Shown here: one piece after another, positions 11,725 through 33,589 of the stretch | How positions within the stretch are numbered: the stretch's first letter is position 1 | Layout: the number at the start of each line of letters is the position of its first letter | Origin: Phytopythium helicoides | Lineage: Eukaryota > Oomycota > Peronosporomycetes > Pythiales > Pythiaceae | Reading direction: 5' to 3' | Length of the DNA: 64,000 bases | Assembly: GCA_024867545.1 (NCBI GenBank) | Contig: JANFNE010000001.1 | Location: 1,364,001-1,428,000 of the forward strand | Position numbers and translations under genes: made by a program | The notes under the pieces: model-generated | Told to the model about the DNA's origin: nothing | Databases searched by the model: none | Seen by the model: the letters and a program-made list of their open reading frames with translations, nothing else

Positions 11725-13293
11725 ATGTCTGTTTTAGTTGGTTGCTTCCTGGCACTCCTTCTTTGCCTACCACTCTTCTACACCGTTTACTTTGCCATCA
11801 CACGAACCGCGATCAAGAAGGTGCCCCATGTGCCTATATTCTCGCTAGACTCTCTCTTAGTTTTGCTGAGGATCGCTCGCAATCCTGGTCGTGTTCATGA
11901 AGTTACCGCTGCAATGTGTCGTCACTTCAGCCCTGCCGTCGCGTTTTCGATTTGGATACCAGGTTGGCGCCGTGACTTGCTCGTGTTGAGCTCACCTGAA
12001 TTATTTGAGGATGTACTAAAACATCAGTTCGAGAATTTCCCGAAGGGTGACTACCAGTGCGACAACATGCGCGACTTGCTTGGCTCCGGGATCTTTGCAG
12101 TCGACGGAATACATTGGAGGCAGCAGCGCAAATCTACAAGCCGGTTGTTTACAGCTCGAGCCCTCCGTGAAAGCATGACAACCGTCATTCACCGTCATTT
12201 GGAGACCCTGATATTTGAATTGGGGAATTTTGCAGACACAACTGCCAGAGCCGCAGTTGATTTGCAGGAGCTTCTAAATCAGTTCACTTTCGAAGTCTTC
12301 GCGGAGATTGGCTTTGGCATCGAAGCAACTTCGGGTCGGAGAGCGTCGGGGAACAACCATGTCACGACCTCTTTAGCTTGTAAGTTCCAGAAAGCGTTCG
12401 ATAGCGCGCAGAGAGCGATAGCTCTTCGTTTTGTCCGCCCAGTGTGGTTCTGGAAGCTCCAGAGGTGGCTCAATGCTGGGTTAGAAAGGCAACTGAAGCG
12501 AGATTTGGCCACGTTTAATACGGTCTCTGAGACAATGATCACGAGACTGCTAGAGAACCACAAAACATCGAGTCGGGTTACGATTGGATCGCTTTTCCTA
12601 TCCTCCACTGAAGATCAGCATAATACTGCTCGCCAAGTGTATCGACCGGGACTTCGCGATGCTGTGGTCAACTTTATGCTAGCAGGTCGCGACACATCAG
12701 CGCAAACGCTTTCCTGGTTTTTCTATTGCCTGTCCAGACACCCAGAAGTTGAAGACAAAATCCGCCAAGAGCTTCAGCATACATCAGCAACGCTAAATCC
12801 GCACAACGACGAGAATGAAGCAGAATATGATCAATTTTACTTGGAGGCTGCAATTCGCGAAACGCTGCGCCTCTATCCTCCAGTTCCTTTCACAACTAAG
12901 GATGCAACAATCGACACAGTTCTCTCAGACGGAACCATTGTGCGGGCTGGAACAACCGTGGGCCTTGCATTTTACGCGATGGGTCGCAATCGGCACGTGT
13001 GGGGCAATGACGCAGACGTTTTCAAGCCTGAGCGCTGGCTAGATGAGTCCTCTGGCTCACTGAAGCTGAAGAATGTGTCGGCTTTCAAGTTTACAGCATT
13101 CAACGCAGGTCCACGAACATGCCTGGGCATGAAGCTAGCAATGCTCGAGATGAAAGCTGTCGCGGCAGCGCTGTTGGGCTCGTTTCGCTTCGAGATTGCA
13201 TTGGGAGGTCAAATCTCGAAAGAATGTGAACCAGAGTTAGGACTGACCATGCCCATTCGTGGTGGTCTTCACGTCCACCTCTTTCGATTGTAG
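11725..13293 (+). CDS. Cytochrome P450, CYP86/CYP52-like, intact parent of the array's plus-strand copies
   Basis: 522 residues, single exon, ATG 11725 to TAG 13293. N-terminal transmembrane anchor (about 3-28), C-helix WRQQRK, I-helix AGRDTSAQTLSW with Asp323-Thr324, ExxR, FKPERW, haem loop FNAGPRTCLG with Cys466. It is the only full-length copy of this subtype here: from 12306 onward its 3' part recurs four times downstream in truncated form. The downstream copies share replacements relative to it (for example ASNEDPHNTAHQQ against SSTEDQHNTARQV), so it diverged before the later amplification. Confidence 0.93.
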   Translation: MSVLVGCFLALLLCLPLFYTVYFAITRTAIKKVPHVPIFSLDSLLVLLRIARNPGRVHEVTAAMCRHFSPAVAFSIWIPGWRRDLLVLSSPELFEDVLKHQFENFPKGDYQCDNMRDLLGSGIFAVDGIHWRQQRKSTSRLFTARALRESMTTVIHRHLETLIFELGNFADTTARAAVDLQELLNQFTFEVFAEIGFGIEATSGRRASGNNHVTTSLACKFQKAFDSAQRAIALRFVRPVWFWKLQRWLNAGLERQLKRDLATFNTVSETMITRLLENHKTSSRVTIGSLFLSSTEDQHNTARQVYRPGLRDAVVNFMLAGRDTSAQTLSWFFYCLSRHPEVEDKIRQELQHTSATLNPHNDENEAEYDQFYLEAAIRETLRLYPPVPFTTKDATIDTVLSDGTIVRAGTTVGLAFYAMGRNRHVWGNDADVFKPERWLDESSGSLKLKNVSAFKFTAFNAGPRTCLGMKLAMLEMKAVAAALLGSFRFEIALGGQISKECEPELGLTMPIRGGLHVHLFRL

Positions 13294-13426
13294 CAGAGGC
13301 GGTGAGCATTTAGCTACAGTAGAGTAAGAAGCGATGATGGATCCATTTCATATACCAAAGGCACTCTGACTCCAGGTGATGCCCATTCTTCGTTTCTCAA
13401 CTAGCAAAAAGAAAATGCGCCTGAGC

Positions 13427-15061
13427 TCACGACTTGGTAACCTTGACGAAGAAAGACTCGGGTTGCATCGGGAGTGTCAGCGTGAACGAGTACTTGACTC
13501 GCTCGGGATTCTCGACTTCAAAGTGGAACGCGCGGAGCAGAGCAGCTGCGACCACTTTGAGCTCTAGCAAGGCGATGGCCTCTCCGAGGCAGCGGCGAGG
13601 ACCAGCATTGAATACTGGGTATTGCGAGGCCGAGACCTGGCGAAGTCGACCGTCAACTAGCCACCGCTCTGGCTTGAACTCCTCCGCATCGGCACCCCAC
13701 ACAGACTCCATCCGCGCCATGGCGTAAAACGCCAAGAAGACCGTCGATCCCTCTGGAATGAGCGTCTCTCCATCGATGATTACATCTTCCGCTGCGTCCT
13801 TTGTAGACGCCGGAACCGGAGGGTGGAGTCGCAGAGTCTCTCGGATCACCGCATCCAAGTAAGGTAGCGCTGCGACCTGAGCCACAGTGGGACTACTTGA
13901 TCATCTGTTCCATCGGGGTGAGAGTCCTTGTTGTAGACTGAGGAGGAAATCGGCGGGAGCTCCTTCCGGAGCTCTTCACGGATCTTGGCTTCGACTTCAG
14001 GATGCTGGTGAAGGCGAAGGATAAGCCAACAGAGTGCCTGGGCGATGGGATCGCGACCTGCGATCATGAAGTTGACGACGGCGTCACGGAGGAACAGCGC
14101 ACTCTGCTCGTAGTCGACGTCAAAGACCTCGCTCTCCTCTCCATCTCCTTGCTTCTTGGCTCCCAAGAAGAGCGTCACGATGTTCTTCTCATTCATCGCT
14201 GCGCCTTCAGCGCGCTTCGCCAATGTGTCCTGGATGATGCCAAGCACCGTGGCGTCCACAATCGATAGACAGTGGCGCAGCTCTCTCTCACTGCCGACGT
14301 TGAGCCACCGCTTGACCTTCCAGAGCCACTGCGGCTGCACGAAGCGCATGGCGATAGCGTGATGAGCTCCGTCGAATGCCAACTGAAACGGATGTTCCTC
14401 TTCGGTATTGCTCTGCTGAGACCTCAGGCGAAGACCGAAACCCATGTCCACGAACGCCTCCATCGTGAACCGCTGCATGACTCGGAACAGGTCGAAGCTC
14501 TTGTCTCCACTCTTGGCAGCCAGGTCTCCGAGCAGCACCCCCGTGTGGAAGCGCATGGTGGTGGCCATGGCTTCACGCAGCGGCGGGATCACTCTTGCCG
14601 CGATCTTGCGTTGTCTCGCCCACTGACCGCCGTCCACCGCATGGATGCCGAGCCCAAAGAGGTCGCGGAAGATGGCGCGCTGGAAGTCGCCCTTGGGGAA
14701 GCTGTCGTGGTGGGTCTGCAGCACCAGCTCCACGTCCTTCGGTCGCGAGACGACCTGTGATCCTCGGCAGCCCGAACGCGATGAGCGAGAACGGAGCGCT
14801 GGACGTGTGACGGACGGCGTCCTGCAGCCAGTCGTGGAACCTCGGGGCGTTCCAGAGCAGGTCGACCGTGTGCACGAGTCGAACGAGCAGCGTGGGCATT
14901 GGCAGCCATCGAGGAGCGATGGACCGCCGAGGGTCGAGAGGAGCAGCAGGCTGCGCTGGCAGCTTGTGCTTCGTGGCGCTTCGAAGTGGGACGGCGAGGG
15001 CGAGCAGGGCGACAGCTCCAGCCAGCAGCACCAACTGCGGCGGCGTCATTGGCAGCGGCAT
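13427..15061 (-). pseudogene. Cytochrome P450, minus-strand array copy A, two compensating frameshifts
   Basis: Same gene as the intact copies at 17850, 22314, 26765 and 31125. Against these it lacks one A at about 13891 (GGGACT for GGGAACT) and has one extra C at about 14754, so three overlapping reading frames cover one 545-codon gene; total length is unchanged from copy C. Start taken at ATG 15061 (MPLPMTPPQ), as in copy C. C-terminus reads VTKS rather than VIKP. I-helix AGRDPIAQ, ExxR ETLR, haem loop FNAGPRRCLG. Tail-to-tail with the full plus-strand P450, 133 bp between stops. Assembly error is a live alternative to true decay. Confidence 0.85.
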
Positions 15062-15110
15062 CGCCACGGAGGAAGCAGCGTCAGGAGAGGCTTGGAGGGA
15101 AAAGCTGGAA

Positions 15111-15143
15111 TGGCGTCGAGATGGCGTCGAGATGGCGTCGGGA
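15111..15143. repeat. 11-bp minisatellite 5' of P450 copy A
   Basis: Three copies of an 11-mer tggcgtcg(a/g)ga between the zinc-finger and P450 genes. The same block has three copies in units B-D and four in unit E (32819-32862). Confidence 0.8.
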
Positions 15144-15347
15144 TGGATGGACGAGTCCAGCACAGCGCGAAGAAGAGCTCCGCTGGGTGGTCGCCCGCGG
15201 ATCGCGCCAGGAGGCGCTTCAACGTGAGCATCATGCATGGGTCGGTGCGTCCCACTGCGCTGTGCGCATCGAGTCATTCCACACGTAACATTCGTCATAG
15301 CCACTACTTTCTCCACGCCACACGCACGGCCACTCCTCATACATAGC

Positions 15348-15830
15348 TCAGCACTGCAGGCTGCGACCGACGGTCTTGGAGTGGCGGACGCAGCAGCCGA
15401 GGCGCTGGGCCCACTTGGCGCAGTCGGGCACGGCGCACCGCGTGCCTCCGCCGTGCGTCCTGCAGCGGCCCTTGGAGATGGCGCCCTTGTCGCACGCCGG
15501 GTGCTTGCAGCGCGCGCCGCCGCCGTGCGACTTGCACACGCCTCGCGACTGCACGGGGCGGAAGCAGCCGGCCACCGTGCACAGCTTGAGCCCCTTGTGG
15601 ATGACGCACTTGCTCGCTCCGACGCGCACGGCCCGCAGACACCCCGTGACGGCGCACACCTCGTCCGGACTCGTCGCGATCTTGACGCTCAGCGGGGACA
15701 GCGAGGCGAGCGCCGTCGTGTCCGCCTCGGCTCGCGGTATTGGCGACAGCAGCGCTGGACGCGTCTCCACCTGCTGGCTCGTCGAGGCGTCTGACGTCAG
15801 CAGCATGAGCTTGAATTGCACGATGAGCAT
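15348..15830 (-). CDS. HGGG zinc-finger repeat protein, copy A (WRKY19-like label in oomycetes)
   Basis: 160 residues. After about 55 residues of Ser/Thr-rich lead come four tandem units of about 25 residues with pattern C-x4-C-x(8-10)-C-x2-H followed by GGG (for example CKSHGGGARCKHPAC). Such units are known from oomycete proteins labelled WRKY19-like and should bind zinc; a nuclear regulatory role is inference. No WRKY domain is present. The N-terminus (MLIVQFKLMLLTSD) is formed at a rearrangement junction: in unit E the same gene begins MDVSRLLNPLPALDAAESL and joins this sequence at MLLTSDAS. It lies 286 bp upstream of the P450 on the same strand. Confidence 0.75.
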   Translation of the reverse strand: MLIVQFKLMLLTSDASTSQQVETRPALLSPIPRAEADTTALASLSPLSVKIATSPDEVCAVTGCLRAVRVGASKCVIHKGLKLCTVAGCFRPVQSRGVCKSHGGGARCKHPACDKGAISKGRCRTHGGGTRCAVPDCAKWAQRLGCCVRHSKTVGRSLQC

Positions 15831-16724
15831 CGGACGGCGCTCGTGCCGAACGAATTGGTCACGTCGTTAGCGCCGACCTGTCAGGCCATGCTGCAAGCCA
15901 TTATGAGCATCGGACGACTGCAGGCTCCAAACCATTGTTTGGAGTGCGCAAGAAAAAAAGCCTTATGTTGGTACTTTGGAAATGGAAGATTCGGCAAGAT
16001 TCATGAAAAAATTCGCACAAGTTTTATTTCAAGCGCCAACATACAATTCTACAGTGTGCCCACCAAAAAACCTCAGAATTAGCGGTTTTCGGCATAAAGA
16101 TTACGAACATTCTCAAACCAGCTAATTCTTAGCTTTTCTAGTAAAACCGCTGCGAGGGATAGGGAAGGGGTAGGGATTGAATCGAGTCGATCAACCTTGG
16201 GCATTTTTTCGGCATAAAGATTACGCGCGCTGCGAGGGTATAGTTGAAGTGCATCGAATCAACCTTGGGCATTTTATGATTGAAGCCTCACAACGCGATT
16301 TTCCTCGCAACCACCACCATGCATTTCGCTGCGCTTCACGCCATTGAGCCTCGCCCGGGCACCAGCAAACGTCCCGTTGGTGTCGACGACGATCTCGCCG
16401 CTCCTCGAGCAGTCTCAGCGGGAGTACGAGCGCGAGCAGAAGGAGATTGAGCAGAATGAGCTCCGGCTGCAGAGAAAGCGTCGTCATGCTCAGAGTATAT
16501 AATGCAGGAAGAGTATAATTAGTAGATGTCCCAGCTCCAGCACTAGCACAATTCGATATTGCAGCAGCAGCACCACCAGTAGCAGCACCAGCACCAGCAG
16601 CAGTAGCTCGTGCCGCACCCAGGCCAACGAGTCGATCTGCCCTAAGCCCCATGCCAAGCTTCCCGTCCAGATTCAAATGAAGGCCTGCGCTAAGCTGCCC
16701 ATCAAGATGCCCGATCTCCCGTTC
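15831..16724. repeat. Array spacer A-B
   Basis: About 0.9 kb, repeated in each junction. It contains an AT-rich part with two imperfect direct copies of ttttcggcataaagattacg and of atcaaccttgggcatttt (16085-16274), a short coiled-coil-like ORF region, CAG-rich sequence (16560-16610), and a segment ending exactly where truncated P450 begins. It matches neither the left nor the right flank of the array, so it came from a third locus or predates the flanks. No intact gene is seen. Confidence 0.7.
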
Positions 16725-17716
16725 AGATTGGCTTTGGCATCGAAGCAACTTCGGGCCGAAAAGCGTCGGGGGACAACCTTGTCACGATTTCTTTAGCTTG
16801 TCAGTTCCAGAAAGCGTTCGATAGCGCGCAGAGAGTGATAGCTCTTCGTTTTGTCCGCCCGGTGTGGTTCTGGAAGCTCCAGAGGTGGCTCAATGCTGGG
16901 TTAGAAAGGCAACTGAAGCTAGATTTGGCCACGATTAATACGGTCTCTGAGACAATGATCACGAGACTGCTAGAGGACCACAAAGCATCGAGTCGAGTTA
17001 CGATCGCATCGCTTTTCCTAGCCTCCAATGAGGATCCGCATAACACTGCTCACCAGCAAGCGAATCGACTGGGACTTCGCGATGCTGTGGTCAACTTTAT
17101 GCTGGCAGGTCGCGACACATCTGCGCAGACGCTTTCCTGGTTTTTCTATTGCCTGTCCAGACACCCAGAAGTTGAAGACAGAATCCGCAAAGAGCTTCGG
17201 CGTACTTCACCAATGCCAAGTTCGCACAACGACGGGAACGAAGCAGAATATGATCGAATATACTTGGAGGCTGCAATTCGCGAAACGCTGCGTCTCTATC
17301 CTCCGGTTCCTTTCACAACAAAGGATGCATCAATCGACACAGTTCTCTCGGACGGAACCATTGTGCGAGCTGGAACAACCGTGGGCCTTGCATTCTACGC
17401 GATGGGTCGCAATCGGAACGTGTGGGGCAATGACGCAGACGTCTTCAAGCCTGAGCGCTGGCTTCATGAGTCCTCCGGCTCACTGAAGCTGAAGAATGTG
17501 TCGGCTTTCAAGTTCACAGCATTCAACGCAGGTCCACGAACATGCCTGGGCATGAAGCTAGCAATGCTCGAGATGAAAGCTGTAGCGGCAGCGCTGTTGA
17601 GCTCGTTTCGCTTCGAGATTGCATTGGGAAGTCAAATCTCGAAAGAATGTGAGCCAGAGTTAGGACTGACCATGCCCATTCGTGGTGGTCTTCACGTCCA
17701 CCTCTTTCGATTGTAG
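16725..17716 (+). pseudogene. P450, 5'-truncated plus-strand copy B
   Basis: Corresponds to the 3' part of the P450 at 11725-13293, from IGFGIEATSGR to the end. About 190 N-terminal residues (anchor, hinge, C-helix) are missing and the sequence is fused to array spacer. An in-frame TAA lies about 50 bp upstream of the junction and there is no P450 start. The retained part is undamaged: AGRDTSAQ, ETLR, FKPERW, FNAGPRTCLG. Without B- and C-helices it cannot fold as a P450. The clean frame suggests recent duplication, gene conversion or some use of the transcript. Confidence 0.88.
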
Positions 17717-17849
17717 CCGACATGGTGGTGAGCATTTAGCTATAGTAGAGTAAGATGCGATGAATCCATTTCAAATACCAAAGGCACTCTGACTCCAGGT
17801 GATGCCCATTCTTCGTTTCTCAACTAGCAAAAAGAAAATGCGCCAGAGC

Positions 17850-19487
17850 TCACGGCTTGATAACCTTGACGAAGAAAGACTCGGGTTGCATCGGGAGTGT
17901 CAGCGTGAACGAGTACTTGACTCGCTCGGGATTCTCGACTTCAAAGTGGAACGCGCGGAGCAGAGCAGCTGCGACCACCTTGAGCTCCAGCAGGGCGATG
18001 GCCTCTCCGAGGCAGCGGCGAGGACCAGCATTGAACACTGGGTATTGCGAGGCCGAGACCTGGCGAAGTCGACCGTCAACTAGCCACCGTTCTGGCTTGA
18101 ACTCCTCAGCATCGACACCCCACACAGACTCCATCCGCGCCATGGCGTAAAACGCCAAGAAGACCGTCGATCCCTCTGGAATGAGCGTCTCTCCATCGAT
18201 GATTACATCTTCCGCTGCGTCCTTTGTAGACGCCGGAACCGGAGGGTGGAGTCGCAGAGTCTCTCGGATCACCGCATCCAAGTAAGGTAGCGCTGCGACC
18301 TGAGCCACAGTGGGAACTACTTGATCATCTGTTCCATCGGGGTGAGAGTCCTTGTTGTAGACTGAGGAGGAAATCGGCGGGAGCTCCTTCTGGAGCTCTT
18401 CACGGATCTTGGCTTCGACTTCAGGATGCTGGTGAAGGCGAAGGATAAGCCAACAGAGTGCCTGGGCGATGGGATCGCGACCTGCGATCATGAAGTTGAC
18501 GACGGCGTCACGGAGGAACAGCGCACTCTGCTCGTAGTCGACGTCAAAGACCTCGCTCTCCTCTCCATCTCCTTGCTTCTTGGCTCCCAAGAAGAGCGTC
18601 ACGATGTTCTTCTCATTCATCGCTGCGCCTTCAGCGCGCTTCGCCAATGTGTCCTGGATGATGCCAAGCACCGTGGCGTCCACAATCGATAGACAGTGGC
18701 GCAGCTCTCTCTCACTGCCGACGTTGAGCCACCGCTTGACCTTCCAGAGCCACTGCGGCTGCACGAAGCGCATGGCGATAGCGTGATGAGCTCCGTCGAA
18801 TGCCAACTGAAACGGATGTTCCTCTTCGGTGTTGCTCTGCTGAGACCTCAGGCGAAGACCGAAACCCATGTCCACGAACGCCTCCATCGTGAACCGCTGC
18901 ATGACTCGGAACAGGTCGAAGCTCTTGTCTCCGCTCTTGGCAGCCAGGTCTCCGAGCAGCACCCCCGTGTGGAAGCGCATGGTGGTGGCCATGGCTTCAC
19001 GCAGTGGCGGGATCACTCTTGCCGCGATCTTGCGTTGTCTCGCCCACTGGCCGCCGTCCACCGCATGGATGCCGAGCCCAAAGAGGTCGCGGAAGATGGC
19101 GCGCTGGAAGTCGCCCTTGGGGAAGCTGTCGTGGTGGGTCTGCAGCACCAGCTCCACGTCCTTCGGTCGCGAGACGACTGTGATCCTCGGCAGCCCGAAC
19201 GCGATGAGCGAGAATGGAGCGCTGGACGTGTGACGGACGGCGTCCTGCAGCCAGTCGTGGAACCTCGGGGCGTTCCAGAGCAGGTCGACCGTGTGCACGA
19301 GTCGAACGAGCAGCGTGGGCATCGGCAGCCATCGAGGAGCGATGGACCGCCGAGGGTCGAGAGGAGCAGCAGGCTGCGCTGGCAGCAGCTTGTGCTTCGT
19401 GGCGCTTCGAAGTGGGACGGCGAGGGCGAGCAGGGCGACAGCTCCAGCCAGCAGCACCAACTGCGGCGGCGTCATTTGCGACTGCAT
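17850..19487 (-). CDS. Cytochrome P450, minus-strand array copy B, intact
   Basis: 545 residues from ATG 19487 (MQSQMTPPQ). The frame stays open upstream to 19628, but that part runs through the 11-bp minisatellite and is not shared between copies, so the shorter start is preferred. Leu/Val anchor at residues 8-25, C-helix WARQRK, K-helix ETLR, FKPERW, haem loop FNAGPRRCLG with Cys492. I-helix is AGRDPIAQ: the Thr normally paired with the Asp for oxygen activation is Pro339. That change is in all five copies, so it is not an error. Activity may be altered. Stops of this gene and the plus-strand copy are 133 bp apart. Confidence 0.92.
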   Translation of the reverse strand: MQSQMTPPQLVLLAGAVALLALAVPLRSATKHKLLPAQPAAPLDPRRSIAPRWLPMPTLLVRLVHTVDLLWNAPRFHDWLQDAVRHTSSAPFSLIAFGLPRITVVSRPKDVELVLQTHHDSFPKGDFQRAIFRDLFGLGIHAVDGGQWARQRKIAARVIPPLREAMATTMRFHTGVLLGDLAAKSGDKSFDLFRVMQRFTMEAFVDMGFGLRLRSQQSNTEEEHPFQLAFDGAHHAIAMRFVQPQWLWKVKRWLNVGSERELRHCLSIVDATVLGIIQDTLAKRAEGAAMNEKNIVTLFLGAKKQGDGEESEVFDVDYEQSALFLRDAVVNFMIAGRDPIAQALCWLILRLHQHPEVEAKIREELQKELPPISSSVYNKDSHPDGTDDQVVPTVAQVAALPYLDAVIRETLRLHPPVPASTKDAAEDVIIDGETLIPEGSTVFLAFYAMARMESVWGVDAEEFKPERWLVDGRLRQVSASQYPVFNAGPRRCLGEAIALLELKVVAAALLRAFHFEVENPERVKYSFTLTLPMQPESFFVKVIKP

Positions 19488-19543
19488 CGCCACGAGGCGG
19501 AGCGAGGAAGCAGCGTCTGGAGGCTTGGAGGGAAAAGCTGGAA

Positions 19544-19576
19544 TGGCGTCGGGATGGCGTCGGGATGGCGTCGGGA
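19544..19576. repeat. 11-bp minisatellite, unit B
   Basis: Three copies of tggcgtcggga, the homogenised version of the block in unit A. Confidence 0.75.
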
Positions 19577-19776
19577 AGGATGGATCGAGTCCAGCGCAGC
19601 GAGACGAAGAGCTCCGCTGGGTGGTCACCCACGGATCGCGCCAGAAGGCGCTACAACGTGAGCATCATGCATGGGTCAGTGCGTCCCACTGCGCTGTGCG
19701 CATCGAGTCATTCCACACGTAACATTCGTCATAGCCACTACTTTCTCCACGCACACGCACGGCCACTCCTCATAGC

Positions 19777-20198
19777 TCAGCACTGCAGGCTGCGACCGAC
19801 GGTCTTGGAGTGGCGGACGCAGCAGCCGAGGCGCTGGGCCCACTTGGCGCAGTCGGGCACGGCGCACCGCGTGCCTCCGCCGTGCGTCCTGCAGCGGCCC
19901 TTGGAGATGGCGCCCTTGTCGCACGCCGGGTGCTTGCAGCGCGCGCCACCGCCGTGCGACTTGCACACGCCTCGCGACTGCACGGGGCGGAAGCAGCCGG
20001 CCACCGTGCACAGCTTGAGCCCCTTGTGGATGACGCACTTGCTCGCTCCAACGCGCACGGCCCGCAGACAGCCCGTGACGGCGCACACCTCGTCCGGACT
20101 CGTCGCGATCTTGACGCTCAGCGGGGACAGCGAGGCGAGCGCCGTCGCGTCCGCCTCGGCTCGCAGTATTGGCGACAGCAGCGCTGGACGCGTCTCCA

Positions 20199-20233
<35 letters not shown>

Positions 20234-20289
20234 CTCGTCGAGGCGTCTGACGTCAGCAGCATGAGCTTGAATTGCACGATGAGCCCCAC
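19777..20289 (-). CDS. HGGG zinc-finger repeat protein, copy B with expanded polyQ
   Basis: 170 residues, same as copy A in the zinc-binding units. It differs by a run of 11 Gln after DASTS (CTG triplets on the plus strand, about 20201-20233) where copies A, C and D have two. N-terminus is MGLIVQFKLMLLTSD. An in-frame CAG expansion specific to one of five near-identical copies indicates slippage after the duplication. Confidence 0.75.
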
Positions 20290-21188
20290 AACAGCCGACG
20301 CTCGTGCCGAACGAATTGGTCACGTCGTTAGCGCCGGTCAGGCCATGCTGCAAGCCATTATGAGCATCGGACGACTGCAGGCTCCAAACCATTGTTTGGA
20401 GTGCGCAAGAAAAAAAGCCTTATGTTGGTACTTTGGAAATGGAAGATTCGGCAAGATTCATGAAAAAATTCGCACAAGTTTTATTTCAAGCGCCAACATA
20501 CAATTCTACAGTGTGCCCACCAAAAAACCTCAGAATTAGCGGTTTTCGGCATAAAGATTACGAACATTCTCAAACCAGCTAATTCTTAGCTTTTCTAGTA
20601 AAACCGCGCTGCGAGGGATAGGGAAGGGGTAGGGATTGAATCGAGTCGATCAACCTTGGGCATTTTTTCGGCATAAAGATTACGCGCGCTGCGAGGGTAT
20701 AGTTGAAGTGCATCGAATCAACCTTGGGCATTTTATGATTGAAGCCTCACAACGCGATTTTCCTCGCAACCACCACCATGCATTCGCTGCGCTTCACGCC
20801 GTTGAGCCTCGCCCGGGCACCAGCAAACGCCCCGTTGGTGTCGACGACGATCTCGCCGCTCCTCGAGCAGTCTCAGCGGGAGTACGAGCGCGAGCAGAAG
20901 GAGATTGAGCAGAATGAGCTCCGGCTGCAGAGAAAGCGTCGTCATGCTCAGAGTATATAATGCAGGAAGAGTATAACTAGTAGATGTCCCAGCTCCAGCC
21001 CCAGCACAATACGATACTGCAGCAGCAGCAGCAGCAGCAGCAGTAGCAGCACCAACACTAGCAGCAGTAGCTCGTACCGCCCCCAGGCCAACGAGTCGAT
21101 CTGGCCTAAGCCCCATGCCAAGCTACCCGTCCAGATTCAAATGAAGGCACCCGCTAAGCTCCGCATCAAGATGCCCGATCTCCCGTTC
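20290..21188. repeat. Array spacer B-C
   Basis: Same spacer as A-B with small indels. It contains an uninterrupted run of eight CAG/GCA triplets near 21020-21045 and an open 73-codon frame (20739-20960; SPLLEQSQREYEREQKEIEQ segment) that is shifted in units A and C by one T. Best read as a captured exon fragment, not a gene. Confidence 0.6.
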
Positions 21189-22180: not shown

Positions 22181-22313
22181 CCGACATGGTGGTGAGCATT
22201 TAGCTGCAGTAGAGTAAGATGCGATGAATCCATTTCAAATACCAAAGGCACTCTGACTCCAGGTGATGCCCATTCTTCGTTTCTCAACTAGCAAAAAGAA
22301 AATGCGCCAGAGC

Positions 22314-24230: not shown

Positions 24231-24713
24231 TCAGCACTGCAGGCTGCGACCGACGGTCTTGGAGTGGCGGACGCAGCAGCCGAGGCGCTGGGCCCACTTG
24301 GCGCAGTCGGGCACGGCGCACCGCGTGCCTCCGCCGTGCGTCCTGCAGCGGCCCTTGGAGATGGCGCCCTTGTCGCACGCCGGGTGCTTGCAGCGCGCGC
24401 CACCGCCGTGCGACTTGCACACGCCTCGCGACTGCACGGGGCGGAAGCAGCCGGCCACCGTGCACAGCTTGAGCCCCTTGTGGATGACGCACTTGCTCGC
24501 TCCAACGCGCACGGCCCGCAGACAGCCCGTGACGGCGCACACCTCGTCCGGACTCGTCGCGATCTTGACGCTCAGCGGGGACAGCGAGGCGAGCGCCGTC
24601 GTGTCCGCCTCGGCTCGCAGTATTGGCGACAGCAGCGCTGGACGCGTCTCCACCTGCTGGCTCGTCGAGGCGTCTGACGTCAGCAGCATGAGCTTGAATT
24701 GCACGATGAGCAT
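24231..24713 (-). CDS. HGGG zinc-finger repeat protein, copy C
   Basis: 160 residues, near-identical to copy A (LSPILRAEADTT in place of LSPIPRAEADTT). Four C-x4-C...C-x2-H/GGG units. The same chimaeric N-terminus MLIVQFKLMLLTSD derives from the array junction. Two-Gln version of the Q tract. Confidence 0.75.
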   Translation of the reverse strand: MLIVQFKLMLLTSDASTSQQVETRPALLSPILRAEADTTALASLSPLSVKIATSPDEVCAVTGCLRAVRVGASKCVIHKGLKLCTVAGCFRPVQSRGVCKSHGGGARCKHPACDKGAISKGRCRTHGGGTRCAVPDCAKWAQRLGCCVRHSKTVGRSLQC

Positions 24714-25638
24714 CGGACGGCGCTCGTGCCGAACGAATTGGTCACGTCGTTAGCGCCGACCTGTCAGGCCATGCTGCAAGCCATTATGAGCATCGGACGA
24801 CTGCAGGCTCCAAACCATTGTTTGGAGTGCGCAAGAAAAAAAGCCTTATGTTGGTACTTTGGAAATGGAAGATTCGGCAAGATTCATGAAAAAATTCGCA
24901 CAAGTTTTATTTCAAGCGCCAACATACAATTCTACAGTGTGCCCACCAAAAAACCTCAGAATTAGCGGTTTTCGGCATAAAGATTACGAACATTCTCAAA
25001 CCAGCTAATTCTTAGCTTTTCTAGTAAAACCGCGCTGCGAGGGATAGGGAAGGGGTAGGGATTGAATCGGTCGATCAACCTTGGGCATTTTTTCGGCATA
25101 AAGATTACGCGCGCTGCGAGGGTATAGTTGAAGTGCATCGAATCAACCTTGGGCATTTTATGATTGAAGCCTCACAACGCGATTTTCCTCGCAACCACCA
25201 CCATGCATTTCGCTGCGCTTCACGCCATTGAGCCTCGCCCGGGCACCAGCAAACGTCCCGTTGGTGTCGACGACGATCTCGCCGCTCCTCGAGCAGTCTC
25301 AGCGGGAGTACGAGCGCGAGCAGAAGGAGATTGAGCAGAATGAGCTCCGGCTGCAGAGAAAGCGTCGTCATGCTCAGAGTATATAATGCAGGAAGAGTAT
25401 AACTAGTAGATGTCCCAGCTCCAGCCCCAGCAGTATATGCTGCCCCAGCTCCAGCACTAGCACAATACGATACTGCAGCAGCAGCACCACCAGTAGCAGC
25501 ACCAGCACCAGCAGCAGTAGCTCGTGCCGCACCCAGGCCAACGAGTCGATCTGCCCTAAGCCCCATACCAAGCTTCCCGTCCAGATTCAAATGAAGGCCT
25601 GCGCTAAGCTGCGCATCAAGATGCCCGATCTCCCGTTC
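24714..25638. repeat. Array spacer C-D
   Basis: Spacer copy with an extra duplicated segment (agctccagccccagcagtatatgctgcccc region, 25415-25450) shared with D-E but absent from A-B and B-C. No gene. Confidence 0.65.
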
Positions 25639-26630
25639 AGATTGGCTTTGGCATCGAAGCAACTTCGGGTCGAAAAGCGTCGGGGGACAACCTTGTCACG
25701 ATTTCTTTAGCTTGTCAGTTCCAGAAAGCGTTCGATAGCGCGCAGAGAGTGATAGTTCTTCGTTTTGTCCGCCCGGTGTGGTTCTGGAAGCTCCAGAGGT
25801 GGCTCAATGCTGGGTTAGAAAGGCAACTGAAGCTAGATTTGGCCACGATTAATACGGTCTCTGAGACAATGATCACGAGACTGCTAGAGGACCACAAAGC
25901 ATCGAGTCGAGTTACGATCGCATCGCTTTTCCTAGCCTCCAATGAGGATCCGCATAACACTGCTCACCAACAAGCGAATCGACTGGGACTTCGCGATGCT
26001 GTGGTCAACTTTATGCTGGCAGGTCGCGACACATCTGCGCAGACGCTTTCCTGGTTTTTCTATTGCCTGTCCAGACACCCAGAAGTTGAAGACAGAATCC
26101 GCAAAGAGCTTCGGCGTACTTCACCAATGCCAAGTTCGCACAACGACGGGAACGAAGCAGAATATGATCGAATATACTTGGAGGCTGCAATTCGCGAAAC
26201 ACTGCGTCTCTATCCTCCGGTTCCTTTCACAACAAAGGATGCATCAATCGACACAGTTCTCTCGGACGGAACCATTGTGCGAGCTGGAACAACCGTGGGC
26301 CTTGCATTCTACGCGATGGGTCGCGATCGGAACGTGTGGGGCAATGACGCAGACGTCTTCAAGCCTGAGCGCTGGCTTCATGAGTCCTCCGGCTCACTGA
26401 AGCTGAAGAATGTGTCGGCTTTCAAGTTCACAGCATTCAACGCAGGTCCACGAACATGCCTGGGCATGAAGCTAGCAATGCTCGAGATGAAAGCTGTAGC
26501 GGCAGCGCTGTTGAGCTCGTTTCGCTTCGAGATTGCATTGGGAAGTCAAATCTCGAAAGAATGTGAGCCAGAGTTAGGACTGACCATGCCCATTCGTGGT
26601 GGTCTTCACGTCCACCTCTTTCGATTGTAG
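25639..26630 (+). pseudogene. P450, 5'-truncated plus-strand copy D
   Basis: Same truncation point as copies B, C and E. Frame open to TAG 26630. It shares with copy E the changes AQRVIVLRF and AMGRDRN, so D and E are sisters in this part. Catalytic 3' motifs are retained. Confidence 0.88.
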
Positions 26631-26764
26631 CCGACATGGTGGTAAGCATTTAGCTGCAGTAGAGTAAGATGCAATGAATCCATTTCAAATACCAAAGGCA
26701 CTCTGACTCCAGGTGATGCCCATTCTTCGTTTCTCAACTAAGCAAAAAGAAAATGCGCCAGAGC

Positions 26765-28402
26765 TCACGGCTTGATAACCTTGACGAAGAAAGACTCGGG
26801 TTGCATCGGGAGTGTCAGCGTGAACGAGTACTTGACTCGCTCGGGATTCTCGACTTCAAAGTGGAACGCGCGGAGCAGAGCAGCTGCGACCACCTTGAGC
26901 TCCAGCAGGGCGATGGCCTCTCCGAGGCAGCGGCGAGGACCAGCATTGAACACTGGGTATTGCGAGGCCGAGACCTGGCGAAGTCGACCGTCAACTAGCC
27001 ACCGTTCTGGCTTGAACTCCTCAGCATCGACACCCCACACAGACTCCATCCGCGCCATGGCGTAAAACGCCAAGAAGACCGTCGATCCCTCCGGAATGAG
27101 CGTCTCTCCATCGATGATTACATCTTCCGCTGCGTCCTTTGTAGACGCCGGAACCGGAGGGTGGAGTCGCAGAGTCTCTCGGATCACCGCATCCAAGTAA
27201 GGTAGCGCTGCGACCTGAGCCACAGTGGGAACTACTTGATCATCTGTTCCATCGGGGTGAGAGTCCTTGTTGTAGACTGAGGAGGAAATCGGCGGGAGCT
27301 CCTTCCGGAGCTCTTCACGGATCTTGGCTTCGACTTCAGGATGCTGGTGAAGGCGAAGGATAAGCCAACAGAGTGCCTGGGCGATGGGATCGCGACCTGC
27401 GATCATGAAGTTGACGACGGCGTCACGGAGGAACAGCGCACTCTGCTCGTAGTCGACGTCAAAGACCTCGCTCTCCTCTCCATCTCCTTGCTTCTTGGCT
27501 CCCAAGAAGAGCGTCACGATGTTCTTCTCATTCATCGCTGCGCCTTCAGCGCGCTTCGCCAATGTGTCCTGGATGATGCCAAGCACCGTGGCGTCCACAA
27601 TCGATAGACAGTGGCGCAGCTCTCTCTCACTGCCGACGTTGAGCCACCGCTTGACCTTCCAGAGCCACTGCGGCTGCACGAAGCGCATGGCGATAGCGTG
27701 ATGAGCTCCGTCGAATGCCAACTGAAACGGATGTTCCTCTTCGGTATTGCTCTGCTGAGACCTCAGGCGAAGACCGAAACCCATGTCCACGAACGCCTCC
27801 ATCGTGAACCGCTGCATGACTCGGAACAGGTCGAAGCTCTTGTCTCCACTCTTGGCAGCCAGGTCTCCGAGCAGCACCCCCGTGTGGAAGCGCATGGTGG
27901 TGGCCATGGCTTCACGCAGCGGCGGGATCACTCTTGCCGCGATCTTGCGTTGTCTCGCCCACTGGCCGCCGTCCACCGCATGGATGCCGAGCCCAAAGAG
28001 GTCGCGGAAGATGGCGCGCTGGAAGTCGCCCTTGGGGAAGCTGTCGTGGTGGGTCTGCAGCACCAGCTCCACGTCCTTCGGTCGCGAGACGACTGTGATC
28101 CTCGGCAGCCCGAACGCGATGAGCGAGAATGGAGCGCTGGACGTGTGACGGACGGCGTCCTGCAGCCAGTCGTGGAACCTCGGGGCGTTCCAGAGCAGGT
28201 CGACCGTGTGCACGAGTCGAACGAGCAGCGTGGGCATCGGCAGCCATCGAGGAGCGATGGATCGCCGAGGGTCGAGAGGAGCAGCAGGCTGCGCTGGCAG
28301 CAGCTTGTGCTTCGTGGCGCTTCGAAGTGGGACGGCGAGGGCGAGCAGGGCGACAGCTCCAGCCAGCAGCACCAACTGCGGCGGCGTCATTTGCGACTGC
28401 AT
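26765..28402 (-). CDS. Cytochrome P450, minus-strand array copy D, intact
   Basis: 545 residues from ATG 28402 (MQSQMTPPQ). Near-identical to copy B; carries LAAKSGDKS and AGRDPIAQ. Anchor, C-helix, ETLR, FKPERW and FNAGPRRCLG all present. Tail-to-tail with truncated plus copy D, 134 bp apart. Confidence 0.92.
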   Translation of the reverse strand: MQSQMTPPQLVLLAGAVALLALAVPLRSATKHKLLPAQPAAPLDPRRSIAPRWLPMPTLLVRLVHTVDLLWNAPRFHDWLQDAVRHTSSAPFSLIAFGLPRITVVSRPKDVELVLQTHHDSFPKGDFQRAIFRDLFGLGIHAVDGGQWARQRKIAARVIPPLREAMATTMRFHTGVLLGDLAAKSGDKSFDLFRVMQRFTMEAFVDMGFGLRLRSQQSNTEEEHPFQLAFDGAHHAIAMRFVQPQWLWKVKRWLNVGSERELRHCLSIVDATVLGIIQDTLAKRAEGAAMNEKNIVTLFLGAKKQGDGEESEVFDVDYEQSALFLRDAVVNFMIAGRDPIAQALCWLILRLHQHPEVEAKIREELRKELPPISSSVYNKDSHPDGTDDQVVPTVAQVAALPYLDAVIRETLRLHPPVPASTKDAAEDVIIDGETLIPEGSTVFLAFYAMARMESVWGVDAEEFKPERWLVDGRLRQVSASQYPVFNAGPRRCLGEAIALLELKVVAAALLRAFHFEVENPERVKYSFTLTLPMQPESFFVKVIKP

Positions 28403-28691
28403 CGCCACGAGGCGGAGCAAGGAAGCAGCGTCTGGAGGCTTGGAGGGAAAAGCTGGAATGGCGTCGGGATGGCGTCGGGATGGCGTCGGGAAGGATGGAT
28501 CGAGTCCAGCGCAGCGAGACGAAGAGCTCCGCTGGGTGGTCACCCACGGATCGCGCCAGAAGGCGCTTCAACGTGAGCATCATGCATGGGTCAGTGCGTC
28601 CCACTGCGCTGTGCGCATCGAGTCATTCCACACGTAACATTCGTCATAGCCACTACTTTCTCCACGCACACGCACGGCCACTCCTCATAGC

Positions 28692-29171
28692 TCAGCACTG
28701 CAGGCTGCGACCGACGGTCTTGGAGTGGCGGACGCAGCAGCCGAGGCGCTGGGCCCACTTGGCGCAGTCGGGCACGGCGCACCGCGTGCCTCCGCCGTGC
28801 GTCCTGCAGCGGCCCTTGGAGATGGCGCCCTTGTCGCACGCCGGGTGCTTGCAGCGCGCGCCACCGCCGTGCGACTTGCACACGCCTCGCGACTGCACGG
28901 GGCGGAAGCAGCCGGCCACCGTGCACAGCTTGAGCCCCTTGTGGATGACGCACTTGCTCGCTCCGACGCGCACGGCCCGCAGACAGCCCGTGACGGCGCA
29001 CACCTCGTCCGGACTCGTCGCGATCTTGACGCTCAGCGGGGACAGCGAGGCGAGCGCCGTCGTGTCCGCCTCGGCTCGCGGTATTGGCGACAGCAGCGCT
29101 GGACGCGTCTCCACCTGCTGGCTCGTCGAGGCGTCTGACGTCAGCATGAGCTTGAATTGCACGATGAGCAT
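28692..29171 (-). CDS. HGGG zinc-finger repeat protein, copy D
   Basis: 159 residues, one fewer than A because an AGC triplet is lost next to the junction (KLMLTSD for KLMLLTSD). Zinc-binding units unchanged. Same chimaeric start. Confidence 0.75.
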   Translation of the reverse strand: MLIVQFKLMLTSDASTSQQVETRPALLSPIPRAEADTTALASLSPLSVKIATSPDEVCAVTGCLRAVRVGASKCVIHKGLKLCTVAGCFRPVQSRGVCKSHGGGARCKHPACDKGAISKGRCRTHGGGTRCAVPDCAKWAQRLGCCVRHSKTVGRSLQC

Positions 29172-30073
29172 CGGACGGCGCTCGTGCCGAACGAATTGGT
29201 CACGTCGTTAGCGCCGACCTGTCAGGCCATGCTGCAAGCCATTATGAGCATCGGACGACTGCAGACTTTGGAGTGCGCAAGAAAAGCCTTATGTTGGTAC
29301 TTTGGAATGGAAGATTCGGCAAGATGCATGAAAAAATTCGCACAAGTTTTATTTCAAGCGCCAACATACAATTCTACAGTGTGCCCACCAAAAAACCTCA
29401 GAATTAGCGGTTTTCGGCATAAAGATTACGATCATTCTCAAACCAGCTAATTCTTAGCTTTTCTAGTAAAACCGCGCTGCGAGGGATAGGGGAGGGGTAG
29501 GGATTGAATCGAGTCGATCAACCTTGGGCATTTTTTCGGCATAAAGATTACGCTGCGAGGGTATAGTTGAAGTGCATCGAATCAACCTTGGGCATTTTCC
29601 TTCTAGTGAAGGCTCACAACGCGATTTTCCTCGCAACCATGCATTCGCTGCGCTTCACGCCGTTGAGCCTCGCCCGGGCACCAGCAAACGTCCCGTTGGT
29701 GTCGACGACGATCTCGCCGCTCCTCGAGCATTCTCAGCGGGAGTACGAGCGCGAGCAGAAGGAGATTGAGCAGAATGAGCTCCGGCTGCAGAGAAAGAGT
29801 CGTCATGCTCAAAGTACATAATGCAGGAAGAGTATAACTAGTAGATGTCCCAGCTCCAGCCCCAGCAGTATATGCTGCCCCAGCTCCAGCACTAGCACAA
29901 TACGATACTGCAGCAGCAGCACCACCAGTAGCAGCACCAGCACCAGCAGCAGTAGCTCGTGCCGCACCCAGGCCAACGAGTCGATCTGCCCTAAGCCCCA
30001 TACCAAGCTTCCCGTCCAGATTCAAATGAAGGCCTGCGCTAAGCTGCGCATCAAGATGCCCGATCTCCCGTTC
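29172..30073. repeat. Array spacer D-E
   Basis: Spacer copy with several small deletions relative to the others (for example near 29262-29290 and 29640). Open frame 29567-29821 corresponds to the coiled-coil-like fragment seen in B-C. No gene. Confidence 0.6.
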
Positions 30074-31065
30074 AGATTGGCTTTGGCATCGAAGCAACTT
30101 CGGGTCGAAAAGCGTCGGGGGACAACCTTGTCACGATTTCTTTAGCTTGTCAGTTCCAGAAAGCGTTCGATAGCGCGCAGAGAGTGATAGTTCTTCGTTT
30201 TGTCCGCCCGGTGTGGTTCTGGAAGCTCCAGAGGTGGCTCAATGCTGGGTTAGAAAGGCAACTGAAGCTAGATTTGGCCACGATTAATACGGTCTCTGAG
30301 ACAATGATCACGAGACTGCTAGAGGACCACAAAGCATCGAGTCGAGTTACGATCGCATCGCTTTTCCTAGCCTCCAATGAGGATCCGCATAACACTGCTC
30401 ACCAACAAGCGAATCGACTGGGACTTCGCGATGCTGTGGTCAACTTTATGCTGGCAGGTCGCGACACATCTGCGCAGACGCTTTCCTGGTTTTTCTATTG
30501 CCTGTCCAGACACCCAGAAGTTGAAGACAGAATCCGCAAAGAGCTTCGGCGTACTTCACCAATGCCAAGTTCGCACAACGACGGGAACGAAGCAGAATAT
30601 GATCGAATATACTTGGAGGCTGCAATTCGCGAAACACTGCGTCTCTATCCTCCGGTTCCTTTCACAACAAAGGATGCATCAATCGACACAGTTCTCTCGG
30701 ACGGAACCATTGTGCGAGCTGGAACAACCGTGGGCCTTGCATTCTACGCGATGGGTCGCGATCGGAACGTGTGGGGCAATGACGCAGACGTCTTCAAGCC
30801 TGAGCGCTGGCTTCATGAGTCCTCCGGCTCACTGAAGCTGAAGAATGTGTCGGCTTTCAAGTTCACAGCATTCAACGCAGGTCCACGAACATGCCTGGGC
30901 ATGAAGCTAGCAATGCTCGAGATGAAAGCTGTAGCGGCAGCGCTGTTGAGCTCGTTTCGCTTCGAGATTGCACTGGGAAGTCAAATCTCGAAAGAATGTG
31001 AGCCAGAGTTAGGACTGACCATGCCCATTCGTGGTGGTCTTCACGTCCACCTCTTTCGATTGTAG
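30074..31065 (+). pseudogene. P450, 5'-truncated plus-strand copy E
   Basis: Same truncation as B-D; sister to copy D. The gap to the minus-strand P450 is 59 bp rather than 133: a 74-bp deletion lies between short GGTG direct repeats just after the stop codon. Confidence 0.88.
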
Positions 31066-31124
31066 CCGACATGGTGATGCCCATTCTTCGTTTCTCAACT
31101 AGCAAAAAGAAGATGCGCCAGAGC

Positions 31125-32762
31125 TCACGGCTTGATAACCTTGACGAAGAAAGACTCGGGTTGCATCGGGAGTGTCAGCGTGAACGAGTACTTGACTCGC
31201 TCGGGATTCTCGACTTCAAAGTGGAACGCGCGGAGCAGAGCAGCTGCGACCACCTTGAGCTCCAGCAGGGCGATGGCCTCTCCGAGGCAGCGGCGAGGAC
31301 CAGCATTGAACACTGGGTATTGCGAGGCCGAGACCTGGCGAAGTCGACCGTCAACTAGCCACCGTTCTGGCTTGAACTCCTCAGCATCGACACCCCACAT
31401 AGACTCCATCCGCGCCATGGCGTAAAACGCCAAGAAGACCGTCGATCCCTCCGGAATGAGCGTCTCTCCATCGATGATTACATCTTCCGCTGCGTCCTTT
31501 GTAGACGCCGGAACCGGAGGGTGGAGTCGCAGAGTCTCTCGGATCACCGCATCCAAGAAAGGTAGCGCTGCGACCTGAGCCACAGTGGGGACAACTTGGT
31601 CGTCTGTTCCATCGGGGTGAGCGTTCTTGTTGTAGACCGAGGAGGAAATCGGCGGGAGCTCTTTGCGGAGCTCTTCGCGGATCTTGGCTTCGACTTGAGG
31701 ATGCTGGTGAAGGCGAAGGATGAGCCAACAGAGTGCCTGGGCGATGGGATCGCGACCTGCGATCATGAAGTTGACGACGGCGTCACGGAGGAACAGCGCA
31801 CTCTGCTCGTAGTCGACGTCAAAGACCTCGCTCTCCTCGCCATCTCCTTGCTTCTTGGCTCTCAAGAAGAGCGTCACAATGTTCTTCTCGTTCATCGCTG
31901 CTCCTTCAGCGTGCTTCGCCAATGTGTCCTGGATGATGTCAAGCACCGTGGCGTCCACAATCGATAGGCAGTGGCGCAGCTCTCTCTCACTGCCGACGTT
32001 GAGCCATCGCTTGACCTTCCAGAGCCACTGCGGCTGCACGAAGCGCATGGCGATGGCGTGATGAGCTCCGTCGAATGCCAACTGAAACGGATGCTCCTCG
32101 TCGGTGTTGCTCTGCTGAGACCTCAGGCGAAGACCGAAGCCCATGTCCACGAACGCCTCCATCGTGAACCGCTGCATGACTCGGAACAGGTCGAAGCTCT
32201 TGTCTCCGCTCTTGCCAGCCAGGTCGCCGAGCAGCACGCCCGTGTGGAAGCGCATGGTGGTGGCCATGGCTTCACGCAGCGGCGGGATCACTCTTGCCGC
32301 GATCTTGCGTTGTCTCGCCCACTGACCGCCGTCCACCGCATGGATACCGAGCCCAAAGAGGTCGCGGAAGATGGCGCGCTGGAAGTCGCCCTTCGGGAAG
32401 CTGTCGTGGTGGGTCTGCAGCACCAGCTCCACGTCCTTCGGTCGCGAGACGACTGTGATCCTCGGCAGCCCGAACGCGATGAGCGAGAATGGAGCGCTGG
32501 ACGTGTGACGGACGGCGTCCTGCAGCCAGTCGTGGAACCTCGGGGCGTTCCAGAGCAGGTCGACCGTGTGCACGAGTCGAACGAGCAGCGTGGGCATCGG
32601 CAGCCATCGAGGAGCGATGGATCGCCGAGGGTCGAGAGGAGCAGCAGGCTGCGCTGGCAGCAGCTTGTGCTTCGTGGCGCTTCGAAGTGGGACGGCGAGG
32701 GCGAGCAGGGCGACAGCTCCAGCCAGCAGCACCAACTGCGGCGGCGTCATTTGCGACTGCAT
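31125..32762 (-). CDS. Cytochrome P450, minus-strand array copy E, most diverged intact copy
   Basis: 545 residues from ATG 32762 (MQSQMTPPQ). It has the most amino-acid differences among the five (NKNAHPDGTDDQ, LRAKKQ, KHAEGAA, TVLDIIQ, ESMWGVD). It shares LAGKSGDKS with copy C. AGRDPIAQ, ETLR, FKPERW and FNAGPRRCLG are conserved. Being next to single-copy flank, it may be the oldest position of this gene. Confidence 0.92.
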   Translation of the reverse strand: MQSQMTPPQLVLLAGAVALLALAVPLRSATKHKLLPAQPAAPLDPRRSIAPRWLPMPTLLVRLVHTVDLLWNAPRFHDWLQDAVRHTSSAPFSLIAFGLPRITVVSRPKDVELVLQTHHDSFPKGDFQRAIFRDLFGLGIHAVDGGQWARQRKIAARVIPPLREAMATTMRFHTGVLLGDLAGKSGDKSFDLFRVMQRFTMEAFVDMGFGLRLRSQQSNTDEEHPFQLAFDGAHHAIAMRFVQPQWLWKVKRWLNVGSERELRHCLSIVDATVLDIIQDTLAKHAEGAAMNEKNIVTLFLRAKKQGDGEESEVFDVDYEQSALFLRDAVVNFMIAGRDPIAQALCWLILRLHQHPQVEAKIREELRKELPPISSSVYNKNAHPDGTDDQVVPTVAQVAALPFLDAVIRETLRLHPPVPASTKDAAEDVIIDGETLIPEGSTVFLAFYAMARMESMWGVDAEEFKPERWLVDGRLRQVSASQYPVFNAGPRRCLGEAIALLELKVVAAALLRAFHFEVENPERVKYSFTLTLPMQPESFFVKVIKP

Positions 32763-32818
32763 CGCCACGAGGCGGAGCAAGGAAGCAGCGTCTGGAGGCT
32801 TGGAGGGAAAAGCTGGAA

Positions 32819-32862
32819 TGGCGTCGGGATGGCGTCGGGATGGCGTCGGGATGGCGTCGGGA
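32819..32862. repeat. 11-bp minisatellite, unit E, four copies
   Basis: Four copies of tggcgtcggga against three in the other units. Confidence 0.75.
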
Positions 32863-33062
32863 AGGATGGATCGAGTCCAGCGCAGCGAGACGAAGAGCTC
32901 CGCTGGGTGGTCACCCACGGATCGCGCCAGAAGGCGCTACAACGTGAGCATCATGCATGGGTCAGTGCGTCCCACTGCGCTGTGCGCATCGAGTCATTCC
33001 ACACGTAACATTCGTCATAGCCACTACTTTCTCCACGCACACGCACGGCCACTCCTCATAGC

Positions 33063-33589
33063 TCAGCACTGCAGGCTGCGACCGACGGTCTTGGAGTGGC
33101 GGACGCAGCAGCCGAGGCGCTGGGCCCACTTGGCGCAGTCGGGCACGGCGCACCGCGTGCCTCCGCCGTGCGTCCTGCAGCGGCCCTTGGAGATGGCGCC
33201 CTTGTCGCACGCCGGGTGCTTGCAGCGCGCGCCGCCGCCGTGCGACTTGCACACGCCTCGCGACTGCACGGGGCGGAAGCAGCCGGCCACCGTGCACAGC
33301 TTGAGCCCCTTGTGGATGACGCACTTGCTCGCTCCGACCCGCACGGCCCGCAGACAGCCCGTGACGGCGCACACCTCGTCCGGACTCGTCGCGATCTTGA
33401 GGCTCAGCGGGGACAGCGAGGCGAGCGCTGTCGTGTCTGCCTCGGCTCGCGGCATTGGCGACAGCAGCGAAGGGCGAGTCTCCACCTGCTGCTGCTGGTG
33501 GGGCTCGTCGAGGCGTCTGACGTCAGCAGCATGAGCGACTCGGCCGCGTCGAGCGCCGGCAGCGGGTTCAGCAGCCGCGAGACGTCCAT
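33063..33589 (-). pseudogene. HGGG zinc-finger gene, copy E with native 5' end, frameshifted
   Basis: The only array copy with its original N-terminus, ATG 33589 (MDVSRLLNPLPALDAAESL), followed by MLLTSDASTS. An 11-nt insertion in the CAG/CCC stretch (about 33488-33500) relative to copies A-D then shifts this frame away from the zinc-finger frame (QQQQVETRPSLLSP onward), which itself stays open through all four units to 33063. Either a broken gene or an indel in a slippery repeat. It shows what the array copies lost: about 17 N-terminal codons and the native promoter. Confidence 0.7.

What the first reader, a model, noticed from the sequence alone, without database searches (positions are those of the whole stretch)
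12306..33536. Five-unit, 4.4-kb tandem amplification coupling two P450s with a zinc-finger gene
Five head-to-tail units (starts 12306, 16725, 21189, 25639, 30074) are near-identical over coding and non-coding parts. The array raises the dosage of one intact P450 and a putative regulator together. Period lengths differ by only tens of bases. Oomycete P450 families are often clustered, but amplification of a mixed P450/zinc-finger unit stands out.
Basis: partly seen in the sequence, partly recalled or inferred. Interest (0 to 1): 0.75.

Follow-up and report, generated by a model that had tools for sequence, protein, structure and literature searches.

The report
Tandem P450 array with truncated neighbours
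A water-mould genome carries five head-to-tail copies of a 4.4-kb block that multiplies one complete cytochrome P450 gene, while the second P450 and the zinc-finger gene in the block are cut by the block's own ends; it is an ordinary kind of gene amplification, but the multiplied enzyme has an unusual active-site residue.

Summary
The array is real in this assembly: five units at the stated starts, 95.9-98.8% identical. The reading needs correction. The unit ends lie inside two genes. P450-A is whole only at the left end; units 2-5 hold its 3' 329 codons. The zinc-finger gene Z (Zf_WRKY19) lacks its N-terminus and native upstream DNA in units 1-4; unit 5 has the native 5' end but its frame is broken. 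Only P450-B is amplified as a complete gene: open in 4 of 5 units, frameshifted in unit 1, with no other close copy found in the genome. A ~0.9-kb insert joins Z' to A', with a phosphate-transporter gene relic and a small inverted-repeat element. Units 2-4 are hybrids: unit-5-like left of ~18,120, unit-1-like just right of it, with equal divergence on both sides (Ks ~0.11). This fits an old two-copy state expanded by unequal crossing-over. A-Z linkage probably predates the array. P450-B carries Pro instead of the I-helix Thr in 5 of 5 copies and in its closest homolog. Copy number is untested by reads. Known kind of event, modest interest.

The parts
11725..13293 (+). P450-A, full-length gene (522 aa); unit 1 begins inside it at 12306
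   Evidence: PF00067 E 1.2e-68; ORF
12306..16724 (.). array unit 1
16725..21188 (.). array unit 2
21189..25638 (.). array unit 3
25639..30073 (.). array unit 4
30074..33536 (.). array unit 5, lacks the joining insert; homology to the other units ends at 33536
16727..17716 (+). A' of unit 2: 3' 329 codons of P450-A; 253-aa ORF from an internal ATG at 16955
21191..22180 (+). A' of unit 3; one stop upstream of the internal ATG
25641..26630 (+). A' of unit 4
30076..31065 (+). A' of unit 5
13427..15061 (-). P450-B of unit 1, broken by two single-base indels
17850..19487 (-). P450-B of unit 2, intact, 545 aa
22314..24122 (-). P450-B of unit 3, open (602-aa ORF; the part homologous to the other copies starts near 23948)
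26765..28402 (-). P450-B of unit 4, intact, 545 aa
31125..32762 (-). P450-B of unit 5, intact, 545 aa, the most divergent intact copy
15348..15830 (-). Z' of unit 1 (Zf_WRKY19, N-terminally truncated)
19777..20262 (-). Z' of unit 2, with an expanded CAG (Gln) tract
24231..24713 (-). Z' of unit 3
28692..29171 (-). Z' of unit 4
33063..33589 (-). [not shown]
15811..16724 (.). joining insert, unit 1/2 (left edge = end of homology with unit 5)
20267..21188 (.). joining insert, unit 2/3
24694..25638 (.). joining insert, unit 3/4
29152..30073 (.). joining insert, unit 4/5
20293..20386 (-). relic of the N-terminal part of a PHO4-type phosphate transporter gene in the insert
   Evidence: 83% DNA match over 60 bp to C24:1347506, inside a PHO4 gene; tblastn match in 4 of 4 inserts
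20519..20599 (.). small element with 28-bp imperfect inverted arms (79%); relative at C20:153187
18115..18125 (.). switch point inside P450-B where units 2-4 change from unit-5-like to unit-1-like

Best explanation
A segmental tandem duplication, sealed with a ~0.9-kb patchwork insert, gave a first copy (whole P450-A, P450-B, Z' cut at its 5' end) and a last copy (A' cut at its 5' end, P450-B, Z with native 5' end). The two diverged to Ks ~0.11. Unequal crossing-over between them, with a switch point inside P450-B near 18,120, made a hybrid middle unit; further unequal crossing-over and gene conversion raised the count to five. The net effect on complete genes is extra copies of P450-B alone, a P450 of the oomycete set whose relatives are named as fatty-acid or alkane hydroxylases; Z' and A' ride along as fragments. 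The simplest timing is that the duplication itself ended inside A and Z; truncation by a later deletion, before the amplification, is the main variant (first rival). Shown: anatomy, hybrid pattern, equal divergence. Inferred: order of events, origin of the insert, any effect on expression. The confidence is for the core, whichever timing holds.
Against: A' looks too well preserved for a fragment dead since the first duplication: 0 frame-breaking indels against A, while the insert and the B-Z spacer show 4 per 12-39 substitutions in the four pairs used; the short A-B spacer, however, shows 0 per 6 (units 1-2). Amino-acid changes polarised by P0143 are 8 on A', 11 on A, 18 undecided of 37. So truncation may be younger than the duplication, or A' may be in use. 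Patterns are mixed right of 18,830, so gene conversion is needed too. Copy number was not checked with reads.
Confidence: 0.8

Rival explanations
1. [not shown]
For: A' kept its frame and shows no excess of amino-acid change over A (one-sided P 0.011-0.038 if undecided sites split 8:11).
Confidence: 0.4
2. Assembly artefact: haplotypes or repeat copies joined head to tail, so that the true number is one or two units.
For: No read data were available; unit 1 B and unit 5 Z carry small indels that could be consensus errors.
Against: Copies differ by 49-139 substitutions, carry copy-specific indels, and show an ordered hybrid pattern; they lie inside a 1.96-Mb contig.
Confidence: 0.1
3. Adaptive co-amplification of a P450 pair with its regulator.
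For: Z and P450 genes appear to be neighbours in relatives; the last 122 codons of Z' have no amino-acid change among units 1-4, with 0-3 synonymous changes per pair.
Confidence: 0.07
4. The A' half-P450 is itself a used product, kept as a 253-aa protein.
For: ORF from the internal ATG open in 4 of 4 truncated copies, the only stop (unit 3) lying upstream of it; frame kept.
Against: The 253-aa ORF lacks the N-terminal part up to about the middle of the P450 domain (profile match starts at 236 of 462); codons 1-76 (3 synonymous, 9 non-synonymous) and the rest (21, 29) are not clearly different.
Confidence: 0.1

Closest known systems
Avr1a and Avr3a tandem arrays of Phytophthora sojae (PMC2661136; passages read)
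   Same: Near-identical tandem segments of 5.2 kb (Avr1a, four copies) and 10.8 kb (Avr3a) in an oomycete; the Avr3a segment carries neighbouring genes along; the authors suggest transposable fragments may have played a role.
   Different: Effector genes, not P450; copy number differs among strains there, untested here; hybrid units and gene truncation at the unit ends were not in the passages read.
P450 blooming by tandem duplication in oomycetes, CYP5014/5015/5017 (PMC4486971; passages read)
   Same: Tandem P450 genes of one family; fatty-acid metabolism suggested for CYP5014-CYP5017.
   Different: It counts P450s lying on the same scaffold; the words 'truncated', 'pseudogene', 'zinc' and 'I-helix' do not occur in its main text, so no multi-gene block with cut genes is described. 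The CYP family of P450-A and P450-B was not assigned here.
CYP152 peroxygenases such as OleT (PMC5377825; one passage read)
   Same: Pro in place of the Thr of the acid-alcohol pair.
   Different: CYP152 has Arg-Pro; P450-B keeps the Asp (Asp-Pro). P450-B's best matches with a named organism are oomycete P450s.

Membership tests
Segmental tandem array grown by unequal crossing-over | Head-to-tail near-identical units with shared junctions | tested here: met
Segmental tandem array grown by unequal crossing-over | Inner units are hybrids of the two end units | tested here: met
   up to 18,830; mixed patterns further right need gene conversion
Segmental tandem array grown by unequal crossing-over | Copy number varies among individuals | not testable with these tools
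   one assembly only, no reads
Cytochrome P450 (P450-B) | PF00067 match, ExxR, heme-binding FxxGxRxCxG (motifs recalled) | tested here: met
   E 3e-59; ETLRL, FNAGPRRCLG in 3 of 3 copies read
Cytochrome P450 monooxygenase, canonical | I-helix acid-alcohol pair (Asp/Glu-Thr) | tested here: not met
   AGRDPIA in P450-B; Thr in 216 of 236 aligned sequences
CYP152 peroxygenase | Arg-Pro replacing the acid-alcohol pair | tested here: not met
   Asp-Pro
Zf_WRKY19 zinc-finger protein (Z) | PF24906 repeats over the cut-off | tested here: met
   61.9-62.9 bits against cut-off 27, three stretches, 5 of 5 units
Zf_WRKY19 zinc-finger protein (Z) | N-terminus seen in close homologs (MDV/MNVxxLLNPLP in P0121-P0124) | tested here: not met
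   absent in units 1-4; in unit 5 present but in another frame than the fingers

The most novel reading that the evidence does not exclude
The array selectively multiplies a P450 with altered oxygen activation. P450-B has lost the I-helix Thr (Asp-Pro instead of Asp-Thr), the change predates the array (it is shared with P0001), and the enzyme may work with peroxide or do rearrangement chemistry rather than ordinary monooxygenation, with dosage favoured by selection.
Probability: 0.2. Interest if true: 0.55.

Novelty: new member of a known kind. Interest (0 to 1): 0.33.

Why it matters
It is a readable record of how an oomycete P450 block grows: one founding junction, equal divergence on both sides of a switch point, hybrid middle units. 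It also warns that counting domains in an array overstates gene dosage, since two of the three genes per unit are cut by the unit ends. The amplified P450 has an uncommon active-site residue that could be assayed directly.

Tried and rejected
Origin of the joining insert: searched in the own genome by DNA and by its 60-aa ORF. Only two short pieces found relatives (PHO4 gene on C24, small element on C20); for the rest no source was found (best protein match outside the array 35%, E 0.06; a weak 93-bp match elsewhere in the window, 68%, E 0.03). A second copy of the missing A 5' half: not found; the query's first ~180 bp, which cover the 3' end of the upstream P450 gene, have P450 relatives, but A's own 5' half matched only itself. 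Zinc-finger coupling as a new event: rejected because Z homologs P0121, P0125 and P0127 (3 of 22 listed) share contig lengths with P450 homologs (P0143; P0164; P0159 and P0186). That these are the same contigs is inferred from equal lengths. The P450 lists show the best 120 of 143 and of 889. The P450-B homolog P0001 has a different contig length (5677), so a whole A-B-Z order in that relative is not shown. A structure model of P450-B was not available. Species: not determined; the best homologs are unnamed proteins at 68-69% identity. Different constraint on the untranslated part of A': no clear signal. as proof of absence elsewhere: dropped, since it missed the array itself; one search replaced it. 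Literature: (P450, I-helix, 'threonine replaced by proline', oomycete; at least 3) gave 5 papers, 0 of 5 with that phrase; (oomycete, WRKY19, zinc finger) gave 2 papers, both on plant immune receptors by title and abstract; others (10 of 55 listed; 10 of 35 listed; 6 of 6 listed) showed no P450 array of this form in titles and the starts of abstracts. Beyond these searches and I make no claim that it is not in print.

Full report
Observation. Self-comparison shows five head-to-tail units at exactly the stated starts. Identity is 95.9-98.8% over the 10 pairs, with 49-139 substitutions each. Unit 5 stops at 33536 and lacks the last ~0.9 kb of the others; a search with its right flank found only itself and the array. 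P450-B as a DNA query gave five full-length matches, all in the array, and two short ones at 70-71%. A whole-unit query gave 25 partial matches but missed the array itself, so I do not use it as evidence of absence.

Anatomy. On the plus strand lies P450-A; on the minus strand lie Z, then P450-B. P450-A is whole only as 11725-13293, the unit border cutting it at 12306. Units 2-5 carry the last 329 codons (A'), open in units 2, 4 and 5, with one stop in unit 3 upstream of the internal ATG. P450-B is open in units 2-5 and has two single-base frameshifts in unit 1. Z has three Zf_WRKY19 stretches over the cut-off in 5 of 5 units. Its close homolog P0121 starts MDVSRLLNPLPALDAAES; this start is encoded at 33589 in unit 5 (27 residues, 96% identical) but not in the frame of the fingers, and it is absent from units 1-4.

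Joining insert. Between Z' and A' lie ~0.9 kb found only in the array, except for two pieces. About 60 bp match C24:1347506, inside a PHO4-type transporter gene, and a translated match to that protein is seen in 4 of 4 inserts (E 5e-5 to 2e-4 for a search of these four sequences alone). About 105 bp match C20:153187 at 90%; there the piece sits in a ~141-bp insertion that is absent from a related site on C30, flanked by near-identical 13-bp repeats. In the array this piece has 28-bp arms, 79% complementary. I read it as a small mobile element; that label is mine, and only one relative was found.

History. Counting two-state sites up to 18,830, the sites that separate unit 1 are 70 of 70 left of 18,116, and the sites that separate unit 5 are 2 left and 25 right (Fisher 3.5e-21; sites in order; the cut was placed after seeing them). 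So units 2-4 are like unit 5 on the left and like unit 1 on the right of a point inside P450-B. Both divergences are equal: A/A' Ks 0.114; B of units 2 and 5 between 18116 and 18825 Ks 0.113, with no difference between 17853 and 18115 (with other site counting, gives 0.118 for A/A'). This is what unequal crossing-over between two old copies predicts. Right of 18,830 the patterns are mixed (11 sites group units 1 and 3, for example), so gene conversion also acted. The inserts of units 2 and 4 differ more (39 of 888) than their A' (5 of 990) or B (6 of 1638) parts.

Constraint. B Ka/Ks is 0.06-0.14 over the 6 pairs of intact copies. A/A' (unit 2) has 26 synonymous and 36 non-synonymous differences. 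With P0143 as outgroup, 8 of 37 amino-acid differences fall on A', 11 on A, and 18 are undecided. Between A and each of the 4 A' copies there is 1 in-frame and 0 frame-breaking indel. The insert and the B-Z spacer show 4 frame-breaking ones per 24, 19, 39 and 12 substitutions in the four pairs I used; other pairs range from 0 per 2 (B-Z, units 2-4) to 3 per 5 (B-Z, units 1-3), and the A-B spacer has 0 per 6 (units 1-2). Taken as Poisson with 30 substitutions on the A' line, zero has a probability of 0.00005-0.046 by the rate chosen among the four. The synonymous test gives P 0.011-0.038 if undecided sites split 8:11, and 0.13-0.29 if all go to A'. I conclude that A' probably spent at least part of its life as constrained coding sequence; whether it was then whole or already cut is open.

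Linkage. Equal length suggests the same contig; I could not fetch them. The family is numerous in this genome (150 scored repeat matches of 379 candidates, a lower bound), so chance neighbourhood is possible for single cases.

P450-B active site. The motif is AGRDPIA. In an alignment of 236 P450 sequences (six from the window, only one of them a P450-B copy, and the 230 different proteins listed), the column after the acid reads Thr 216, Ser 10, Ala 4, Pro 2 (P450-B and P0001), Gly 1, Asn 1, gap 2. The codon pattern for AGRDPIA occurs five times in the genome, all in the array (its reversed control matched once). In CYP152 peroxygenases the pair is Arg-Pro (PMC5377825, one passage). P450-B keeps Asp. 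A changed reaction is an inference only.

Verdict. The array is a known kind of event and its reading as co-amplification of two P450s with a regulator does not hold; it multiplies one complete, slightly odd P450.

Noticed in passing
17850-19487 and the other four P450-B copies: I-helix Thr replaced by Pro (AGRDPIA) in 5 of 5 copies and, among 236 aligned sequences, only in P450-B and its closest homolog P0001.
   Followed up: partly
1-13293 and upstream to about C1:1327369: The array lies at the end of a large P450 cluster; some neighbours look like recent duplicates (for example 9992-11478 is 89% identical to a stretch in L023).
   Followed up: partly
4098-5402: P450 with Ser instead of Thr at the same I-helix place (AGRDSIA), shared with P0174.
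   Followed up: no
50602-51024: A second Zf_WRKY19-type gene 17 kb beyond the array, 33% identical to P0121.
   Followed up: no
19543-19576 and the same place in the other units: 11-bp tandem repeat upstream of P450-B, 3.1 to 4.1 copies depending on the unit.
   Followed up: no
C20:152799-153799 and C30:430272-431168: Related sites with and without a ~141-bp insertion flanked by near-identical 13-bp repeats; the inserted piece is related to part of the array's joining insert.
   Followed up: partly
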